Below are positions 1 to 14,511 of a stretch of 35,195 bases of DNA, piece by piece. Made by a program: the position numbers and the translations under genes. Origin of the DNA: Bacteroidales bacterium (GTDB taxonomy: Bacteria > Bacteroidota > Bacteroidia > Bacteroidales > P3). The DNA lies in contig JAKSMP010000023.1 in the NCBI GenBank assembly GCA_024400505.1, positions 1 to 35,195 on the forward strand, in the 5' to 3' direction. The notes under the pieces were generated by a model. That model did not search any database. It saw nothing but the letters and a program-made list of their open reading frames with translations, and had not been told where the DNA came from. Each line of letters opens with the position of its first letter. Within the stretch, counting starts at the first letter, position 1.

Positions 1-141
1 ACCAAGTTAGTGACCAAGTCAGTGACCAAGTTAGTGACCAAGTTAGTGACCAAGTCAGTGACCAAGTTAGTGACCAAGTCAGTGACCAAGTTAGTGACCA
101 AGTTAGTGACCAAGTTAGTGACCAAGTCAGTGACCAAGTTG
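1..141 (+). repeat. 12-bp tandem repeat inside a coding region
   Basis: About twelve head-to-tail copies of a 12-bp unit, gtgaccaagttA or gtgaccaagtcA, with the last copy ending in ttg. The array starts before the window edge. Read in the frame that stays open to position 413 it encodes a Val-Ser-Asp-Gln tetrapeptide. The only recurrent difference between copies (T or C) falls at the third codon position (gtt/gtc, both Val) in that frame, so copies differ only synonymously there. In the frame starting at position 1 the same change would alternate Leu and Ser. This supports the Val-Ser-Asp-Gln frame as the coding one. Confidence 0.95.
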
Positions 142-413
142 GTGACACCTTACAGATTAGGCTTAGTCCTAATCAAAAGAAACTGCTACAACTCATAAAA
201 GGCGATGTCGCCATGGCTGAAATGATGTCATTTCTTGGTTTGGCAAGTCGCAGTTATTTCCGCCAACATATCCTATCACCGCTTATTAAAAACCAGTTCA
301 TCACGCCCACACAGACTGACAAACCTAATAGTTCCAAACAGAAATACCGGCTTACCCCACAAGGCAAAGTCATATCCGATAAATTAAAACGCTCAAATAA
401 CACGAAGCCATGA
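1..413 (+). CDS. C-terminal fragment of AlbA_2- or Fic-type protein with winged helix (5' end outside window)
   Basis: The gene enters the window from the left, reading in the frame whose first complete codon is at position 3. The visible part is a Val-Ser-Asp-Gln repeat linker followed by about 85 residues that look like the winged-helix tail found at the C-terminus of Bacteroidetes ATP-binding AlbA_2/Schlafen-like (RecG-related) regulators and of some Fic proteins. Supporting marks are a helix beginning LSPNQKKLLQLIKGD, a recognition-helix-like stretch with SYFRQHILSPLI, and a wing with KQKYRLTPQGK. The catalytic or ATP-binding part is not visible, so the parent family cannot be decided. 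Its stop overlaps the next start (ATGA at 410-413), which suggests translational coupling to the following cassette. Confidence 0.7.
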   Translation, partial: QVSDQVSDQVSDQVSDQVSDQVSDQVSDQVSDQVSDQVSDQVSDQVGDTLQIRLSPNQKKLLQLIKGDVAMAEMMSFLGLASRSYFRQHILSPLIKNQFITPTQTDKPNSSKQKYRLTPQGKVISDKLKRSNNTKP

Positions 414-1003
414 TAATCATAGAATCAAAAAGAAAGAAAATAGAGACGCTGCAGAAGCTTTACCCAGGGGCTGTGATTGCTGACGTGACAAGCAAGTCGG
501 ACAATGCACAGTTGGTGAAGCTGAGTCCTTTCTACCCCCATGGTGGCATACCTGTGCCCAACTCGCATGGGGTGAAAGCCGCTTGTGTGGAAGCCATCTG
601 GCAGGGGCTGAAGGTGTTTGAATCGTACGGGGTGGATGTGACGATGTTTGGCAACGACACGATGAAGAACATCAAGCGCACTGTGCGCAAATACGGCAAG
701 CCCCTAGGCCACCAGTACGGCTTGGACAGCATCGAGCTGCTAGACTATATCACGGCACGTAAGAAGATTTATATCCCCGCCTATCAATGGGTGCTGGAGA
801 ACAAGGTGCAGGACATCATAGCCCGACTGCGGGAGGCCTCGAAGACCAAGACCATAGTGCTGCTGGACTATGAAACCAACGCCGATGTAGATAACCCCAA
901 GAAACCCTTATCACATGCCGCCTTGATAAAGGCTTATGTGGAAGGCACATATCCCTTTGGACAGAAAACCAAAGACATCAACCAACTGAACCTATTCAAC
1001 TAA
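410..1003 (+). CDS. DUF6939-like protein, possibly NADAR-like
   Basis: A 197-residue soluble protein with no signal peptide. I recognise it from memory as similar to the uncharacterised family DUF6939. Seen in the sequence: an LSPFYPHGGIPVP stretch at residues 38-50, then VEAIWQGLKVF at 60-70, an RTVRKYGKPLG segment at 90-100 and a C-terminal helix ending near residue 178. The order S-x-FYP, then V-E-x-x-x-Q-x-x-K, then a Lys/Arg-rich KxxG segment resembles the core of NADAR (YbiA-like) ADP-ribose glycosidases, some of which act as antitoxins of DarT toxins. That link is inference. It matters because the next gene carries a DarT-like domain. The start overlaps the previous stop by four bases, and the next gene begins 12 bases after its stop. 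Confidence 0.6.
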   Translation: MIIIESKRKKIETLQKLYPGAVIADVTSKSDNAQLVKLSPFYPHGGIPVPNSHGVKAACVEAIWQGLKVFESYGVDVTMFGNDTMKNIKRTVRKYGKPLGHQYGLDSIELLDYITARKKIYIPAYQWVLENKVQDIIARLREASKTKTIVLLDYETNADVDNPKKPLSHAALIKAYVEGTYPFGQKTKDINQLNLFN

Positions 1004-1015
1004 TACTATTATAAT

Positions 1016-2482
1016 ATGAACAAACGCAGTAACTGGGAGGAATTCAAAGCCATCCTCGACCAACACCATATCACCAAGTTGTATCATTTTACAGACCGAG
1101 ACAACTTGGAGTCCATCATCAAGCATGGTGGCTTGTTCTCGTGGGGCGACTGCCAAGACCAAGGCATCAGCATAGCCAAGCCCGGCGGTGGCGGCCCCGG
1201 TTCGCTATCGTGGGGACTGGACCAGCGGGCAGGGCTGAGCCATTATGTGCGGGTGAGTTTCACCACCCAGCACCCCATGATGTATGTGGCCATGAACGAG
1301 GGCCGCATCAGCAACCCCGTAATCTTGGAGATTGACCCCAGCGTGATATACGACACCGAGACCCGCTATGCCAACATGAACGCCACAAGAGGCGAAGCGA
1401 ATGTGGGTAATACGTTGAACGATTTCAAGAGCATACATTTCAACTCGGTGAAGGCTCGCAAGCACTTTGACTTGGATGCCGACGAGCAGCCCTACTTCCA
1501 GGCCGAGATATTGGTGAAGGGCAAGATACCGCTGTCGGCTATCACCAACATTGGCAATTTCGGCATACCCATTCCCAATCAGCCTCAGGCATTGCAGAGC
1601 AAGAACGCCTACACCGCCCGCATTGACCGTGAGCATCCCACGGCATTTATCTTCTTGGTGGATCAGAGCGTGTCGATGAAGCGACTGACAACCTTCAACG
1701 GCGAGGATATGACTATGTCGGAAGCTGTGGCCAGAATTGTCAATGGCCAAATAAACGAGTTGATACAACGCTGCGTGAAGAGCGACGAGACAAGGCACTA
1801 CTTCGACATTGCCGTGATAGGCTATGGCGAGGAGGCTTACTCGGCATGGCAGGGCGACTTGGCGGGGCGCGACTTCGTGACTCCACAAGAAATCAGAGAC
1901 AACCCCTACCGCAAAATAACGGTGCGCGAAGAGGTGCGCACCCGCAAGGGTATCAGTGTGAAAGAGGTGGAGAAAAACCAATGGATAGGTGCACGGCACG
2001 ACGGCTCGTGGACACACATGCACCTGGCCTTCCGCAAAGCACAGCAGCTACTGGAGGTATGGATGGCAGACCATGCCGACAAAGACTGCTATCCGCCCAC
2101 CATCATAAACATCACCGACGGCCAGTACAACCATGTGAGCCACGATGAGATGGCACAGGTGTCGAATGAGTTGAAGAGCCTCTTTACCAATGACGGCAAT
2201 CTGCTGCTATTCAATGTGCATATTGTAGAAGGCAACAGCGAGGCTGTGGCGTTCCCCGCCACCGCAGGCGAGCTGAACGGCAACGGCTATGGCGAGAAAC
2301 TGTTCAATATGTCAAGTCTGCTGCCATTGAACTATAATGAGCAAATCCGCCAGTTGTTTGGAGATGACAAGCAAGCCGATATACGCTATCGCGCCATGGG
2401 CGTAAACACCGGCATGGAGCACTTGGTGAAGATGATGAAGATTGGCACCCTGTCGAGCACTTGGGTAAACAACAACCAATAG
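1016..2482 (+). CDS. DarT-like ADP-ribosyltransferase fused to von Willebrand A domain
   Basis: A 488-residue protein without signal peptide or membrane segments. Residues about 20-185 match the layout of DarT (DUF4433) DNA ADP-ribosyltransferases: YHFT at 23-26, DNLESIIKHGG at 29-39, an Arg at 71 before a HYVRVSFTTQHPMMY block at 76-90 (compare DYVPFYFTPFSPML in E. coli DarT), and QAEILVKGKIP at 162-172, where Glu164 sits at the catalytic glutamate position. Residues about 205-480 form a vWA domain with an intact metal site: DQSVS at 216-220, Thr333 in SWTHM, and NITDG ending at 369. Such vWA domains normally pair with partner proteins, and the next gene is a PP2C phosphatase as in TerY-type modules. 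No DarG macrodomain antitoxin is visible. The DarT assignment is fairly secure; activity and target are unknown. Confidence 0.75.
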   Translation: MNKRSNWEEFKAILDQHHITKLYHFTDRDNLESIIKHGGLFSWGDCQDQGISIAKPGGGGPGSLSWGLDQRAGLSHYVRVSFTTQHPMMYVAMNEGRISNPVILEIDPSVIYDTETRYANMNATRGEANVGNTLNDFKSIHFNSVKARKHFDLDADEQPYFQAEILVKGKIPLSAITNIGNFGIPIPNQPQALQSKNAYTARIDREHPTAFIFLVDQSVSMKRLTTFNGEDMTMSEAVARIVNGQINELIQRCVKSDETRHYFDIAVIGYGEEAYSAWQGDLAGRDFVTPQEIRDNPYRKITVREEVRTRKGISVKEVEKNQWIGARHDGSWTHMHLAFRKAQQLLEVWMADHADKDCYPPTIINITDGQYNHVSHDEMAQVSNELKSLFTNDGNLLLFNVHIVEGNSEAVAFPATAGELNGNGYGEKLFNMSSLLPLNYNEQIRQLFGDDKQADIRYRAMGVNTGMEHLVKMMKIGTLSSTWVNNNQ

Positions 2483-2484
2483 TC

Positions 2485-3285
2485 ATGAGCAAAGGAATGA
2501 CCCTGGCCAAGCCCCGCGAACATCTGGCCAACGAAGATGCCATATTGGTGGCAGAGAACTGCATAGCCGTGTCGGACGGCGCAGGAGGTTGCGGCGTGTT
2601 TGCCAATGAGTGGTCGGCATATCTGTTGGCCAACCTGCCGCAAGACAGACCTTTGACCAAATACGAAGAACTGAACGAATGGATAGACCAGATATGGGAA
2701 CCATTCTACGAAGCACATGAGGAGAAGGCCAAGCTGGGCGATGCAATGCTGGTGCAGAAATACTACAATGAGGGCTCTTTTGCCACCTTGGCTGCGGCAT
2801 GGAAGATAGACGAAAAGCATTGCCGTTGGATGAGCTATGGCGACAGCGTGGTGTTTCATTATTCATCCAAGAACAAGACTTTGGAGCACAGCTTCACCCA
2901 GTTGGCAGATTTCTCAAAGCCACCGCATCTGATTAATTGCAAAGACCCTTTAGCCGAAGAAGGATTTCGCTCAGGTGTGTTTGAATTAGATGAAACATCG
3001 ATGGTGTTTGCGGCAAGCGATGCGCTGTCGCACTACATCTTGATGTGCTATGAATTGGTACATTGTGGAGACTATTACGAAGAACTGATAGCCGAGCGGA
3101 ATAGCGGCACTACCAATGGGCAGTTGCTGGCTGTGGCTGAGCAGATGCCGATGGATTTTGACAAAATGCTGGAAGATTTGTTGGCATCGGTAGAGTCGGT
3201 CGAGATGTTTGACTTGTATCTGCTAGCATTGCAGGAGAAAGGGGTGCTGGATAGAGACGATTATTCGTTGGTGATGATGGGATAG
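2485..3285 (+). CDS. PP2C-type Ser/Thr protein phosphatase
   Basis: A 266-residue PP2C-family protein, counted from the ATG at 2485, two bases after the previous stop. An in-frame TTG at 2461 would overlap the upstream gene and is less likely. PP2C motifs are in order: NEDA at 16-19, SDGAGG at 30-35, GSFATLAAAW at 97-106, YGDS at 118-121, AASD ending at Asp179, and DRDDYSLV at 256-263. The metal-binding aspartates of motifs 1, 2, 8 and 11 therefore appear present. The neighbouring vWA protein and near-zero spacing suggest the two act together, as vWA and PP2C proteins do in TerY-P modules. No partner kinase is present in the window. Dephosphorylation of a phosphoprotein is the expected reaction; the substrate is unknown. 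Confidence 0.8.
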   Translation: MSKGMTLAKPREHLANEDAILVAENCIAVSDGAGGCGVFANEWSAYLLANLPQDRPLTKYEELNEWIDQIWEPFYEAHEEKAKLGDAMLVQKYYNEGSFATLAAAWKIDEKHCRWMSYGDSVVFHYSSKNKTLEHSFTQLADFSKPPHLINCKDPLAEEGFRSGVFELDETSMVFAASDALSHYILMCYELVHCGDYYEELIAERNSGTTNGQLLAVAEQMPMDFDKMLEDLLASVESVEMFDLYLLALQEKGVLDRDDYSLVMMG

Positions 3286-11530: not shown

Positions 11531-12691
11531 TCACACATACAAAAGCGTCACCTCCTTGCCCATGATGCGAAGATTGGCAGCAATGGATTCTACCAGTTTC
11601 AATTTCATTGTGATATCAATATCCAACCCTTGATGAGCTTCGTTGACACTTTGACCAACAAAGAAATGAACATGGGTAGATTGTTCAAACAGAATATCTG
11701 CCAACAAAGATGCGCCATCTCGCTGAGTATAGGTTTTCGGGGTAAGATCGGAAATGGAGATATATTTACGTGACAACTCTAGCAGTCTGCGCAAGGTGAT
11801 TACACCTTCAGTCACTAAGTCAATACCCTTGATATAACCAATAGGCGGTATTTCACGATCAGGAAATTCCAATGAGGTCTTGAGTCGTTCGCCCATGTGG
11901 CGTGCCAATATTTGCGAACTGGTTCCGCCACAAACCACTTTCTTGCCAGGACCCTCTAAGTATCGAGCCACATGAGCCTCATCCTGTTCTTTGTTGACAG
12001 GAGGACCCACCATCACATTCACATCCAACCGACGACGAATGCGCACAGCAGCCACAGTGGTGTCATCAGAAGGCATACCTTCATAAATCTCATTACAGGC
12101 TGAAGCCAGCACACAAGCCGCTGCTCGGGCGGAGTGATCTGCAGTAAGATGATTGTTGAGATATTCTTTAATTTTTTCTCTGGGCCAGCCAAAATTCAGA
12201 ATCATACCGATTCCGGCATGCACAGTGCCGTCACTCATCACCAGCACAATATCACCTTCCTCCAAGTTGAGCTTACTCTTAAACACAGTACGGCCACAAA
12301 CCTCGATTGCCTCTCGATCAAAATCCATTGCTTCTCCGTGATGGTAATAAATGGCTTCGGGATTGTCGAATTCAAAGAGATACCCCTCACCCTGACGGTT
12401 GACATGCACAACAGAGAACGTGGAGTATGCCACCCCTCGAACCTTGCAAACAGGCAAAGTTTCGATGATGGTGGATACACATTCCACTATATCAATGTCA
12501 TTGGACACCATGGTGCATAGAATTTTGGAGGTGAGGGTAGATAGAATGCTGGCTTTCACGCCACTACCCAAACCATCGGCAAGTACCAAGGTGGTATAAT
12601 CGCCATCCACGCAGCTCTCTACATGGTCGCCGCACAACTCCTCGCCTACATGGTTGAGGGATGTGTATCCAGTTTCAAGACATAGTTCCAT
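11531..12691 (-). CDS. SpoIIE/PP2C-type phosphatase linked to sensory hydrogenase
   Basis: A 386-residue protein, counted from the ATG at 12691, one base after the stop of the upstream gene (TAA-T-ATG). A GTG at 12715 would add eight residues by overlapping that gene. Residues 1 to about 210 form a SpoIIE-like phosphatase domain with GDHVES at 21-26, LADGLGSG at 37-44, MSDGTVHAG around Asp154 and PSDDTTV near 200. The remaining roughly 175 residues form a second domain with a GPPVNKEQDE stretch and a CGGTSSQI segment that I cannot name. Phosphatases of this type commonly follow PAS-bearing group C [FeFe]-hydrogenase-like sensors. Here it is the third gene of such an operon and is probably the output module. 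Confidence 0.85.
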   Translation of the reverse strand: MELCLETGYTSLNHVGEELCGDHVESCVDGDYTTLVLADGLGSGVKASILSTLTSKILCTMVSNDIDIVECVSTIIETLPVCKVRGVAYSTFSVVHVNRQGEGYLFEFDNPEAIYYHHGEAMDFDREAIEVCGRTVFKSKLNLEEGDIVLVMSDGTVHAGIGMILNFGWPREKIKEYLNNHLTADHSARAAACVLASACNEIYEGMPSDDTTVAAVRIRRRLDVNVMVGPPVNKEQDEAHVARYLEGPGKKVVCGGTSSQILARHMGERLKTSLEFPDREIPPIGYIKGIDLVTEGVITLRRLLELSRKYISISDLTPKTYTQRDGASLLADILFEQSTHVHFFVGQSVNEAHQGLDIDITMKLKLVESIAANLRIMGKEVTLLYV

Positions 12692-12692
12692 A

Positions 12693-14435
12693 TTACTTAT
12701 CCTCTCTTTGTCCACCTTCTTGCTGCAACATTTTCTTCAGATTGAGCAGAGCCACCTTAGTCTCTGCAGTGGTTTCGCCCAAAAGAGAAGCAATTTCTTG
12801 TGCCACTCGCATTTGCTTCATAATCACTTTATCAGTGGTTTCGATAGTCTCAGCACGCAGGTGTTCGAGCTTTTTCTCATAACTTACTTTATCGGTCACA
12901 TCCTTCATTTGACCAAAAAGGATTTGTTGATCCTTCAGATAGCAGATGGTAATATCAACATATCGATGTGTGCCTGAAATGAACTGGCGATGAACTTCCA
13001 AATTTTTCTGCTGAGAATAAGCCAAAAAGAAATCCAACGAAGAGAAATAGTCATTCAGAGGCCTATGAATGAACTTGTTTGGATTGCCACTCATGCCCAG
13101 CATTTCCATAGCTGTAGCATTGGCATCCACAATGTCCAAATCACCATCAACCAGAATGATACCTTCCGGGCTATTGTGCACAATCTCCACGGCCAGCGAC
13201 TCAGCTTTTTTACGCATATAAGGCAGACACATCTCCACATCGGCATAACCATTGATTACTGCCCAAGCTTTTGCTCTACAGGTACGATAACCGCAGGCAG
13301 AGCAGTTGAGTTCATCCTCTGGGGTGAACTTGTTCATCTTGCGGAGCACTTCTTCAATCTCGCTGGGACTGGCTTTACGGCTGCTGTTAAATATTTGAGG
13401 ATACTGATGTTCGAAACTCACAGTGGTAGTTTCGGGCTGATGAGCTTGTGGGAATTTTGCTTGCTGATTATCAACATAGCTTGCCAATTCAATTTTGGCT
13501 TTAGTTACACCACCCTGGGGCAGACGAGTACAAGGGCCATTGATGCAACCATCAGCACAAAGGTTCATCTCAATAAACACACCTTCGTAGTTTTCAATAT
13601 TTTCAAGCACCTCCATACACCGTTTGGCTCCATCCACGGCCATGTAGAGATAGCCTTGTGGGAGCGTTGAGAAAGAGCCGATTACACCGCTGGTAATAGG
13701 GTAACCTTTGGCTCGTGAGGTGATAAATGAGTCGGATTCGGAATTAATCTGAGGGAAAGGAACTTCAACATCTCCCCATTTGATGGCATGCGTTAGGTTC
13801 TCGCACTCCAATTCTGAAAACGTAAGAACAGCCGAAATCTCGCCGCTATTGGTGGCTTCGCGTTTCTTGGCCAGGCATGGACCTATGAAAACAATTTGGG
13901 CATCGGGGTGTTCCTCATGCAACAGGCGAGCATGAGCCAACATTGGAGACGCAACTGGTGCTAGATAAGGCAGAGCCTGGGGAAAATACTCTTGTATCAA
14001 CCTGTTGGCACCCGGGCAACAAGAAGTGATGAAGTTCTTCATCTTGCCCGTTTTGAGGATTTTGTCATATTCACGAGTCACCCATTCAGCACCACGGGCA
14101 GTTTCTTCGGCATCAAAGAACCCCAAGTTTTTCAACAATTGTTTGATGGGTGTAAAATCATTGAGACCAAAACTAGAGATGAAAGATGGAGCCACACTTG
14201 CAATCACTTTTTTGCCTTCAGCAATCATGCGTTGCACCTTGGGTAGGTCGCCATGCACAATCTTGGCATTTTGAGGGCAAACATGCATGCAATGTCCGCA
14301 GAGAATACAACGATCATCGATAATCTGGGCATGTCCTTCGGCAAAACTAATGGCTTTAACCGGACATTCGCGCAAACAACGATAGCAGTCCTTACACTGC
14401 ACTCGCTTAAATTCAAGATATTGAGAAATGGCCAT
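12693..14435 (-). CDS. hydS: Sensory [FeFe]-hydrogenase-like protein with PAS domain (HydS, group C type)
   Basis: A 580-residue cytoplasmic protein, counted from the ATG at 14435; upstream ATGs at 14468 and 14486 would place coding sequence across a strong hairpin. Residues 10-58 carry two 4Fe-4S motifs (Cys14/17/20/24 and Cys43/46/49/53). The hydrogenase large-subunit domain spans about 75-310 and retains H-cluster cysteines: TSCCPG at 137-142, GPC at 185-187, and Cys293/Cys297 in LCADGC. A further cluster motif follows (Cys378, 381, 386, 403), then a PAS domain at about 415-520 and a C-terminal helix. PAS domains are absent from catalytic hydrogenases. Together with the phosphatase neighbour this points to H2 or redox sensing rather than turnover. 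No catalytic hydrogenase or maturase gene is in the window. Confidence 0.88.
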   Translation of the reverse strand: MAISQYLEFKRVQCKDCYRCLRECPVKAISFAEGHAQIIDDRCILCGHCMHVCPQNAKIVHGDLPKVQRMIAEGKKVIASVAPSFISSFGLNDFTPIKQLLKNLGFFDAEETARGAEWVTREYDKILKTGKMKNFITSCCPGANRLIQEYFPQALPYLAPVASPMLAHARLLHEEHPDAQIVFIGPCLAKKREATNSGEISAVLTFSELECENLTHAIKWGDVEVPFPQINSESDSFITSRAKGYPITSGVIGSFSTLPQGYLYMAVDGAKRCMEVLENIENYEGVFIEMNLCADGCINGPCTRLPQGGVTKAKIELASYVDNQQAKFPQAHQPETTTVSFEHQYPQIFNSSRKASPSEIEEVLRKMNKFTPEDELNCSACGYRTCRAKAWAVINGYADVEMCLPYMRKKAESLAVEIVHNSPEGIILVDGDLDIVDANATAMEMLGMSGNPNKFIHRPLNDYFSSLDFFLAYSQQKNLEVHRQFISGTHRYVDITICYLKDQQILFGQMKDVTDKVSYEKKLEHLRAETIETTDKVIMKQMRVAQEIASLLGETTAETKVALLNLKKMLQQEGGQREDK

Positions 14436-14453
14436 TTGACTAGATAGCGAAAA

Positions 14454-14479
14454 GTGGGTTCTCAACATAGAGAGCCCAC
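14454..14479 (-). terminator. Hairpin (attenuator-like) between NuoE-like gene and hydS
   Basis: A 10-bp stem with one mismatch, 14454-14463 with 14470-14479, around a 6-base loop. On the minus strand it is followed by TTTT. It lies after the NuoE-like stop and just before the preferred hydS start at 14435, so it could partly terminate or attenuate transcription into hydS, or stabilise the upstream message. Confidence 0.55.
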
Positions 14480-14511
14480 CTATCATATAATATTTTGGAA
14501 ATTCTTAGAAA

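What the first reader, a model, noticed from the sequence alone, without database searches (positions are those of the whole stretch)
410..3285. Candidate new system: DUF6939-like + DarT-vWA fusion + PP2C phosphatase
Three tightly packed genes (overlaps or gaps of 12 and 2 bases) combine a DarT-type ADP-ribosyltransferase with a vWA domain, a PP2C phosphatase and a DUF6939-like protein. DarT toxins normally pair with a DarG macrodomain or, in some cases, a NADAR antitoxin. vWA and PP2C proteins pair in TerY-type stress modules. Here the two logics are merged in one cassette. A working model is a nucleic-acid or protein ADP-ribosylating effector that is gated by the vWA/phosphatase pair and reversed by the first protein. 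The family signatures are visible; the model is inference.
Basis: partly seen in the sequence, partly recalled or inferred. Interest (0 to 1): 0.85.

Follow-up and report, generated by a model that had tools for sequence, protein, structure and literature searches.

The report
Kinase-wired DarT toxin cassette
A gut bacterium carries a gene set in which a toxin that probably tags nucleic acids with ADP-ribose is fused to a control domain and flanked by a probable tag-remover, a phosphatase and, very probably just beyond the window, sensor-like kinases, which suggests an immune switch run by protein phosphorylation.

Summary
The three-gene cassette is real: 410-1003 DUF6939, 1016-2482 a DarT ADP-ribosyltransferase fused to a TerY-type vWA, 2485-3285 a PP2C. 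In 18 loci (window included) PP2C follows the fusion in 18 of 18, and DUF6939 precedes it in 17 of 17 whose 5' side is held. In the window's genome two such kinases lie near the end of contig C34, whose last gene runs into the 12-bp repeat with which the window starts. Kinase, vWA and PP2C match PADLOC's STK_OB, TerY and PP2C models. DUF6939 is a distant NADAR relative: its N-terminal half matches DarT1-NADARs (E 5e-6), it keeps an E/K/D motif, and it pairs with DarT in four loci without vWA. Best reading: a TerY-P-type phospho-switch with its own DarT effector and NADAR-like eraser, probably anti-phage.

The parts
1..146 (.). 12-bp tandem repeat (ACCAAGTTAGTG, 12.2 copies) at which the contig starts; the same repeat ends contig C34 of the same genome, which carries two kinase genes
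3..413 (+). 3' part of an SLFN_AlbA_2 / HATPase_c_4 / Fic-like_C gene, overlapping the DUF6939 start by 4 bp; complete in L002; an insertion between kinase and DUF6939 in this lineage, not a conserved member
   Evidence: Pfam Fic-like_C 4.8e-15; whole protein in L002; L003 has a PDC-S02-type gene at this place
410..1003 (+). DUF6939 protein, predicted NADAR-like ADP-ribosyl hydrolase / antitoxin; E61 (590-592), K68 (611-613), D153 (866-868)
   Evidence: PF22075 3.6e-75, PF22397 NADAR-DarT1 8.6e-5 below cut-off; profile match to DarT1-NADARs, N-terminal half; E61/K68/D153 in 18 of 18 rows
1016..2482 (+). DarT-vWA fusion, predicted ADP-ribosyltransferase effector with regulatory vWA
1082..1639 (+). 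DarT domain (residues 23-208); putative catalytic Glu E164 (1505-1507), N122 (1379-1381)
   Evidence: PF14487 8e-40; aligned to E. coli C7 DarT1 8baq
1607..2458 (+). TerY-type vWA domain (residues 198-481); MIDAS D216-x-S218-x-S220 (1661-1675), T333, D368
   Evidence: PADLOC TerY 8.1e-48; these residues in 14 of 14 rows; MIDAS assignment recalled
2485..3285 (+). PP2C-type protein phosphatase
   Evidence: PADLOC PP2C 7.4e-14, Pfam PP2C_2 0.0031 below cut-off; N16-E17-D18, D31-G32, G119-D120, D179, D258-D259 in 14 of 14 rows

Best explanation
The cassette is a phosphorylation-controlled DarT toxin system. One or two Ser/Thr kinases with LRR (BspA-type) or Sel1 repeats act as sensors. Together with the vWA half of the fusion and the PP2C they form a TerY-P-type switch that keeps the attached DarT domain off, or releases it, according to phosphorylation state. 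When released, DarT ADP-ribosylates nucleic acid and stops replication, most likely of an infecting phage or its host cell. DUF6939 acts as a NADAR-type hydrolase that clears stray ADP-ribose and makes the toxin tolerable. Shown here by sequence: gene content, synteny, conserved active-site motifs, purifying selection, DUF6939-NADAR relatedness over the N-terminal half, DarT-DUF6939 pairing outside the cassette. Inferred: sensing by the repeats, phospho-gating of DarT, nucleic acid as target, guanine over thymine, anti-phage role.
For: Order kept in 17 of 17 and 18 of 18 loci; kinase in all 11 loci with about 3 kb or more upstream and in 13 of 18 overall. The gene directly upstream of DUF6939 is a kinase in 9 of 10 loci scanned; the tenth, L002, has the AlbA_2 gene there and the kinase one gene further. 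Best PADLOC model of the two cassette kinases scanned is STK_OB (L002 6.7e-50, L041 7.1e-40). Own genome: two kinases on C34, whose last gene is the same AlbA_2 gene and repeat. Alternative fusion: in G460 a PP2C-like domain with decayed motifs is fused to DarT, beside DUF6939, a separate vWA and a PP2C with these motifs kept. DUF6939 against DarT1-NADAR profiles: E 4.7e-5 (probability 68%), N-terminal half 5e-6; DUF6939 against four unrelated families no better than 0.027, against 20 column shuffles no better than 0.029. DarT-DUF6939 pairs without vWA: L044, L057, L058, L069. DUF6939 fused to a NADAR domain in G602 and beside SIR2, NADAR and ADP-ribosylglycohydrolase in G088. In eight pairs of kinases that I chose, kinase domains are 89-99.7% identical and repeat tails 68-83%, as expected of diverging sensors, though no selection test was made. 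Defence-like genes nest in the locus: PtuA/PtuB-like genes lie between the two kinases of the own genome. TerY-P-like modules are reported as stand-alone anti-phage systems (passages of PMC11090510, and PMC10889362).
Against: The C-terminal half of DUF6939, which holds D153, shows no profile similarity to NADAR on its own (E 0.44-0.75), and a forced global alignment is weak (E 0.0034); NADAR-DarT1 Pfam scores are under the cut-off (22.5 of 27 bits). Outside the full-length fusions, DarT relatives in the order sit beside DUF6939 in only 2 of 9 genomes (G608, G460); G716, G724, G594, G733 and G521 show none in the flank read, and G429 and G760 are cut by contig ends. Position 66 of the fusion is W in 5 of 14 rows, window included, and R in 9; R71 is Q in 2 of 14; the Asp called D54 in E. 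coli DarT1 has no clear counterpart in the window by my alignment, so full DarT1-like activity is not assured. One kinase relative (G646, 48% identity) stands without DarT-vWA in the 16 kb read. The kinase lacks the OB or zinc-ribbon domain of described TerY-P kinases. No kinase was seen in 5 of 18 loci, all cut close upstream. No fusion was found in phages or viral contigs.
Confidence: 0.6

Rival explanations
1. A DarT1-NADAR-like toxin-antitoxin pair that merely hitch-hikes with an independent TerY-P module; the fusion gives co-inheritance or localisation, not gating.
For: DarT-DUF6939 pairs exist without vWA or PP2C beside them (L044, L057, L058, L069); vWA-PP2C-kinase modules without DarT exist elsewhere (L062, L063, L115, L117, L118, L121).
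Against: DarT is fused in frame to vWA in all 18 loci tabulated, which were found by that fusion, and to a PP2C-like domain in G460, two different physical links to the switch; short gaps or overlaps between genes.
Confidence: 0.2
2. A TerY-P stress switch (as proposed for metal or tellurite stress) in which ADP-ribosylation modifies the switch proteins themselves or other proteins, and DUF6939 removes ADP-ribose from protein.
For: TerY-P triads are described as involved in tellurite resistance and hypothesised metal sensing (PMC11090510 passages). DUF6939 also occurs beside ADP-ribosylglycohydrolase and SIR2.
Against: The transferase is of the DarT family, whose studied members modify DNA bases (PMC11543638 passages). 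Whether ter genes lie near these loci was not searched.
Confidence: 0.12
3. The DarT domain of the window's lineage is an impaired, non-catalytic nucleotide or nucleic-acid sensor and the kinase is the effector.
For: W at position 66 in 5 of 14 rows and Q at 71 in 2 of 14; no clear counterpart of D54.
Against: H24, F25, S81, M89, N122 and E164 are 14 of 14; dN/dS of DarT 0.03-0.05.
Confidence: 0.08

Closest known systems
TerY-P triad (TerY-like vWA + PP2C + Ser/Thr kinase)
   Same: All three enzyme types, by PADLOC's TerY, PP2C and STK_OB models; that these three form PADLOC's TerY-P set is recalled, and fits their consecutive accessions
   Different: vWA is fused to DarT; DUF6939 is added; the kinase carries LRR or Sel1 repeats in place of the OB-fold or zinc ribbon described in PMC11090510; sometimes two kinases
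DarTG1 (DarT1-NADAR) toxin-antitoxin
   Same: DarT transferase next to a NADAR-related protein; conserved Glu/Asn/Met/Ser positions match E. coli C7 DarT1
   Different: Antitoxin is DUF6939, below the NADAR-DarT1 cut-off; it lies upstream, whereas in the plasmid DarT loci L082-L084 and L086-L088 the partner lies downstream; DarT fused to vWA; kinase and phosphatase added
DarTG2 (DarT2-DarG macrodomain)
   Same: DarT family toxin
   Different: No macrodomain match among the window's cassette proteins
YarT-YbiA and other ART-NADAR pairs (PMC11125620, passages)
   Same: ADP-ribosyltransferase reversed by a NADAR-fold hydrolase
   Different: Different ART; no phospho-switch mentioned in the passages seen

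Membership tests
TerY-P | TerY-like vWA with MIDAS | tested here: met
   PADLOC TerY 8.1e-48; MIDAS residues in 14 of 14 rows
TerY-P | PP2C phosphatase next to it | tested here: met
   18 of 18 loci; PADLOC PP2C 7.4e-14
TerY-P | Ser/Thr kinase in the locus | tested here: met
   13 of 18 loci, all 11 with about 3 kb or more upstream; not inside the window; in the own genome on contig C34
TerY-P | Kinase C-terminal OB-fold or zinc ribbon | tested here: not met
   LRR_5 repeats in 8 kinases and Sel1 in 1 of 9 scanned; STK_OB match of the L002 kinase stops at model position 271 of 562
TerY-P | Anti-phage activity | not testable with these tools
   needs experiment
DarT | Curated DarT profile over cut-off | tested here: met
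   PF14487 137.1 bits, cut-off 22.5; but NCBIfam DarT equivalog not reached, 51.9 of 150 bits
DarT | ADP-ribosyltransferase fold by structure prediction | not tested
DarTG1 | DarT1 active-site residues E152, N104, M71, R52, D54 | tested here: inconclusive
   E164, N122, M89 in 14 of 14 rows; R71 in 12 of 14; D54 has no clear counterpart in the window; the mapping is my reading
DarTG1 | NADAR-DarT1 antitoxin over Pfam cut-off | tested here: not met
   PF22397 22.5 bits against 27
NADAR superfamily (for DUF6939) | Catalytic Glu-x6-Lys and C-terminal Asp | tested here: met
   E61, K68, D153 in 18 of 18 rows; matched to E88, K95, D171 of E. coli C7 NADAR; D153 by eye only
NADAR superfamily (for DUF6939) | Profile similarity over the whole domain | tested here: inconclusive
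   N-terminal half E 5e-6 and 1.7e-8; C-terminal half 0.75 and 0.44; global 0.0034
DarTG2 | DarG macrodomain partner | tested here: not met
   No macrodomain match in the window's cassette proteins at E up to 1

The most novel reading that the evidence does not exclude
A bacterial immune receptor pathway in which LRR-repeat kinases, duplicated and diverging in their sensor tails, sense infection and by phosphorylation license a physically attached DarT toxin, while a new class of NADAR-like eraser, DUF6939, sets the threshold. DUF6939 would be an antitoxin of a group of Bacteroidota DarT toxins that is plugged into at least two chassis: TerY-P here, and Zorya-like ZorA/ZorB motors elsewhere (L058, L069).
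Probability: 0.4. Interest if true: 0.9.

Novelty: new variant of a known kind. Interest (0 to 1): 0.75.

Why it matters
In the passages seen TerY-P triads are described as phospho-switches, and no effector is named for the stand-alone anti-phage form. Here the switch is fused to an enzyme of known chemistry, so switch state could be read out as ADP-ribosylation. It would also show a way to arm a DarT toxin other than loss of a labile antitoxin, give a function to DUF6939 (no paper in the held library names it), and offer an LRR-kinase immune design in bacteria.

Tried and rejected
Considered and set aside: (1) the three genes as a chance neighbourhood, rejected and by differing flanks (106 flank proteins of 16 of the 18 loci; 7 of 120 locus pairs share any at E 1e-15, three of these being matches among L006, L007 and L014 that I take for LRR cross-matches; held flanks are short in several loci). 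(2) The AlbA_2 gene as a core member: seen only in window/C34 and L002. (3) Fusions outside Bacteroidales: of 390 phylum genomes only the own one matched over the full length; in plasmids no place covered 80% of the fusion; no match in phages and none confirmed in viral contigs. (4) DarT without DUF6939: G716 has a 181-aa DarT remnant (66% identical) without vWA or DUF6939; it breaks off at the start of vWA, so I read it as decayed. In all, 2 of 9 order genomes with a DarT match outside the full fusions have DUF6939 beside it. (5) G646 has the kinase without the rest in 16 kb. (6) DarT tree (31 rows): poorly resolved, 16 of 28 inner branches open; fusions need 1 change, support 59/94; the four DUF6939-linked non-fusion DarTs do not form one group (3 changes); not used as proof. 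(7) PDB profile search with DUF6939 gave no NADAR hit; comparison of the 14-row DUF6939 alignment with one YbiA sequence gave nothing. (8) No RNA family over its gathering score and no tRNA in the window. (9) Paper searches for the combination; no title or abstract start in the listings describes it, but most subscription papers are not held.
Full report
Observation. Pfam and PADLOC identify DUF6939 (PF22075, 3.6e-75), DarT (PF14487, 8e-40) fused to a TerY-type vWA (PDLC02224, 8.1e-48) and a PP2C (PDLC02222, 7.4e-14; Pfam PP2C_2 below cut-off). DUF6939 also matches NADAR-DarT1 weakly (PF22397, 8.6e-5, 22.5 of 27 bits). That PDLC02222-02224 (PP2C, STK_OB, TerY) are PADLOC's TerY-P set is recalled and fits their consecutive numbers.

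Conservation of the cassette. One scan of GTDB contigs gave 15 loci. With the window and two loci from the genome search (G580, G596; G667 is the same locus as L006 and was not counted again), 18 loci were tabulated; all were found by the fusion. PP2C follows the fusion in 18 of 18. DUF6939 precedes it in 17 of 17 whose 5' side is held (L016 starts inside DarT). In L011 the adjacent DUF6939 frame is broken (112 aa, similarity running on beyond it) and a second copy lies between two kinases. Fusion identity to the window ranges from 99% to 58%, while flanking genes mostly differ (16 of the 18 loci). Window against L002 and L003, dN/dS is 0.01-0.15 for all domains; against L005 dS was saturated for three of four.

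The missing kinase. The gene directly upstream of DUF6939 is a Ser/Thr kinase with LRR_5 (8) or Sel1 (1) repeats in 9 of 10 loci scanned; L002 has the AlbA_2 gene there and the kinase one gene further. Over 18 loci a kinase is seen in 13: upstream in all 11 with about 3 kb or more upstream held (L002, L003, L005, L007, L008, L009, L011, L014, L015, L039, L041), and downstream in L004 and L013 (L005 has both). It is not seen in the window, L006, L010, L012 and L016, all cut close upstream; the 5' stretch of L006 reads as LRR repeat. The best PADLOC model is STK_OB for all five kinases scanned, two of them from the cassette (L002, L041). The window is contig C16 of a 73%-complete genome. Its first gene is the tail of an AlbA_2 gene in a 12-bp repeat. 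Contig C34 of the same genome ends in the same gene and repeat; its tail aligns with L002 5214-7124 and the window start with L002 7006-10258. C34 carries two such kinases (683- and 1,070-aa frames) with genes between them whose best PADLOC models are PtuA and PtuB (weaker matches to ATPase_I-A and HNH_I-A). So the window's kinases are very probably just off its left edge. L002, L005, L011, L014, L015 and L039 also have two kinases. In eight pairs that I chose, kinase domains are 89-99.7% identical and tails 68-83% over aligned positions.

How specific is the kinase. In 277 Bacteroidales genomes, 54 match at E 0.001; close relatives (48% identity or more) occur in four: G000, G580 and G596 with the cassette, and G646 without it in the 16 kb read. 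Of the 50 others only a few loci were read (G460, G470, G505, G531, G604).

DUF6939 as an eraser. A profile of 18 DUF6939 proteins (four of them from viral contigs) against seven NADARs downstream of DarT1-like genes gives E 4.7e-5 (probability 68%), and 1.6e-7 (94%) when four large-phage relatives are added. Of the seven NADARs, L075 and L082 were tested with Pfam; the other five were taken by place and likeness. Controls, for the set without phages: DUF6939 against PP2C, vWA, DarT and kinase no better than 0.027; NADAR against the same four no better than 0.26; reversed profile 0.3; 20 column shuffles no better than 0.029. The signal is in the N-terminal half (5e-6 without, 1.7e-8 with phages); the C-terminal halves do not match (0.75 and 0.44), and a global alignment gives 0.0034. 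E61-x6-K68 and D153, invariant in 18 of 18 rows of A2 (14 cassette and 4 viral-contig proteins), correspond to E88, K95 and D171 of E. coli C7 NADAR (passages of PMC11543638); for D153 this is by motif only. Context supports it: DarT-DUF6939 pairs in L044, L057, L058 and L069; a DUF6939-NADAR fusion in G602; SIR2, metallophosphatase, NADAR and ADP-ribosylglycohydrolase beside it in G088, and by likeness a similar cluster in G312; NUDIX and ADP-ribosylglycohydrolase a few genes away, on the other strand, on a Prevotella plasmid. Without an ADP-ribose link in view: the Kitasatospora plasmid and viral contigs L070-L072 (L073 was not read). In the order census 7 of 386 genomes carry DUF6939: four full cassettes (own included), the G460 variant, one DarT pair (G608) and the G602 fusion. 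In the phylum census 4 of 395 do: own, G371 with DarT, G088 and G312. Seen from the DarT side the link is looser: of nine order genomes with a DarT match outside the full fusions, G608 and G460 have DUF6939 beside it; G716, G724, G594, G733 and G521 do not in the flank read, and G429 and G760 are cut by contig ends.

DarT and vWA. The DarT profile finds E. coli C7 DarT1 (1.3e-9) before 7omu (7.4e-6) and 7omv (7.1e-4), which I recall as DarT2-type. H24, F25, S81, M89, N122 and E164 are invariant in 14 of 14 rows of A3 (14 of the 18 loci; L003, L016, L039 and L041 are not in it); W or R at 66 and R or Q at 71 vary. Because the Asn also occurs in 7omu, base specificity cannot be read from it; guanine is only favoured by the NADAR-like partner. 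MIDAS residues of vWA are 14 of 14. In the order 18 of 393 genomes match the fusion, four over its full length; in the phylum sample 21 of 390 match, only the own genome over full length. The vWA-PP2C-kinase loci that I read elsewhere (L062, L063, L115, L117, L118, L121) have no DarT by my profile.

Variant. G460 carries, on a 4.3-kb contig, a PP2C-like domain fused to DarT (NED, DGxGG and GDS motifs decayed; found by my own profile, not by Pfam), DUF6939, a separate vWA and a second PP2C, cut by the contig end, with these motifs kept. A related kinase, interrupted by a stop, lies at the end of another contig.

Known context. PMC11090510 (passages) describes TerY-P triads, kinase with zinc ribbon or OB-fold, and reports TerY-P-like modules as stand-alone anti-phage systems; PMC10889362 (passages) shows TerY-P protection in P. 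aeruginosa. PMC11543638 and PMC11125620 (passages) describe DarT1-NADAR; PMC9503650, PMC7159879 and PMC11833690 (passages) give the wider NAD-ADPr and vWA context. No title or abstract start listed describes a DarT-vWA fusion, and DUF6939 is named in no held paper. Most subscription papers are not held, so this is no proof of novelty.

Verdict. A real, conserved composite: a TerY-P-type phospho-switch with a built-in DarT effector and a NADAR-like eraser. Membership in TerY-P fails on the kinase's C-terminal domain, and in DarTG1 on the antitoxin cut-off; it probably works like both. Mechanism and anti-phage role are inference.

Noticed in passing
L058 6281-10403; L069 4769-8953; L050 4318-9423: A second recurrent DarT system: DarT with a long N-terminal extension, DUF6939 (an ADP-ribosylglycohydrolase at the other end in L050), and ZorA-like and ZorB-like genes (PADLOC matches for L058 and L050; L069 read by eye).
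   Followed up: partly
L074 8122-10139 (C34 of the own genome): PtuA/PtuB-like (Septu-like) genes nested between the two LRR kinases of the cassette.
   Followed up: partly
L003 5920-7002: A PDC-S02-type candidate defence gene sits between kinase and DUF6939, where the window lineage has an AlbA_2 gene: an apparent insertion hotspot.
   Followed up: no
L078, L079, L080, L081: Distant DUF6939 proteins (over the Pfam cut-off) in large phages of Erwinia, Klebsiella and uncultured phages: possible counter-defence against DarT.
   Followed up: partly
L061 933-6549: DUF6939 is the second gene downstream of an Rhs gene on a Bartonella sp. plasmid, in the place of an immunity gene; the Rhs C-terminus has only weak hints (DUF7587 below cut-off, NarE 0.19).
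   Followed up: partly
L114 5814-7070: DUF6939 fused to a NADAR domain in one protein.
   Followed up: yes
L049 4964-7785: A DarT protein downstream of a gene that I read by eye as macrodomain-like; Pfam gave no match for it.
   Followed up: no
window 11531-14486: Phosphatase-like gene next to an iron-sulfur, hydrogenase-like gene, both read by eye; not scanned.
   Followed up: no
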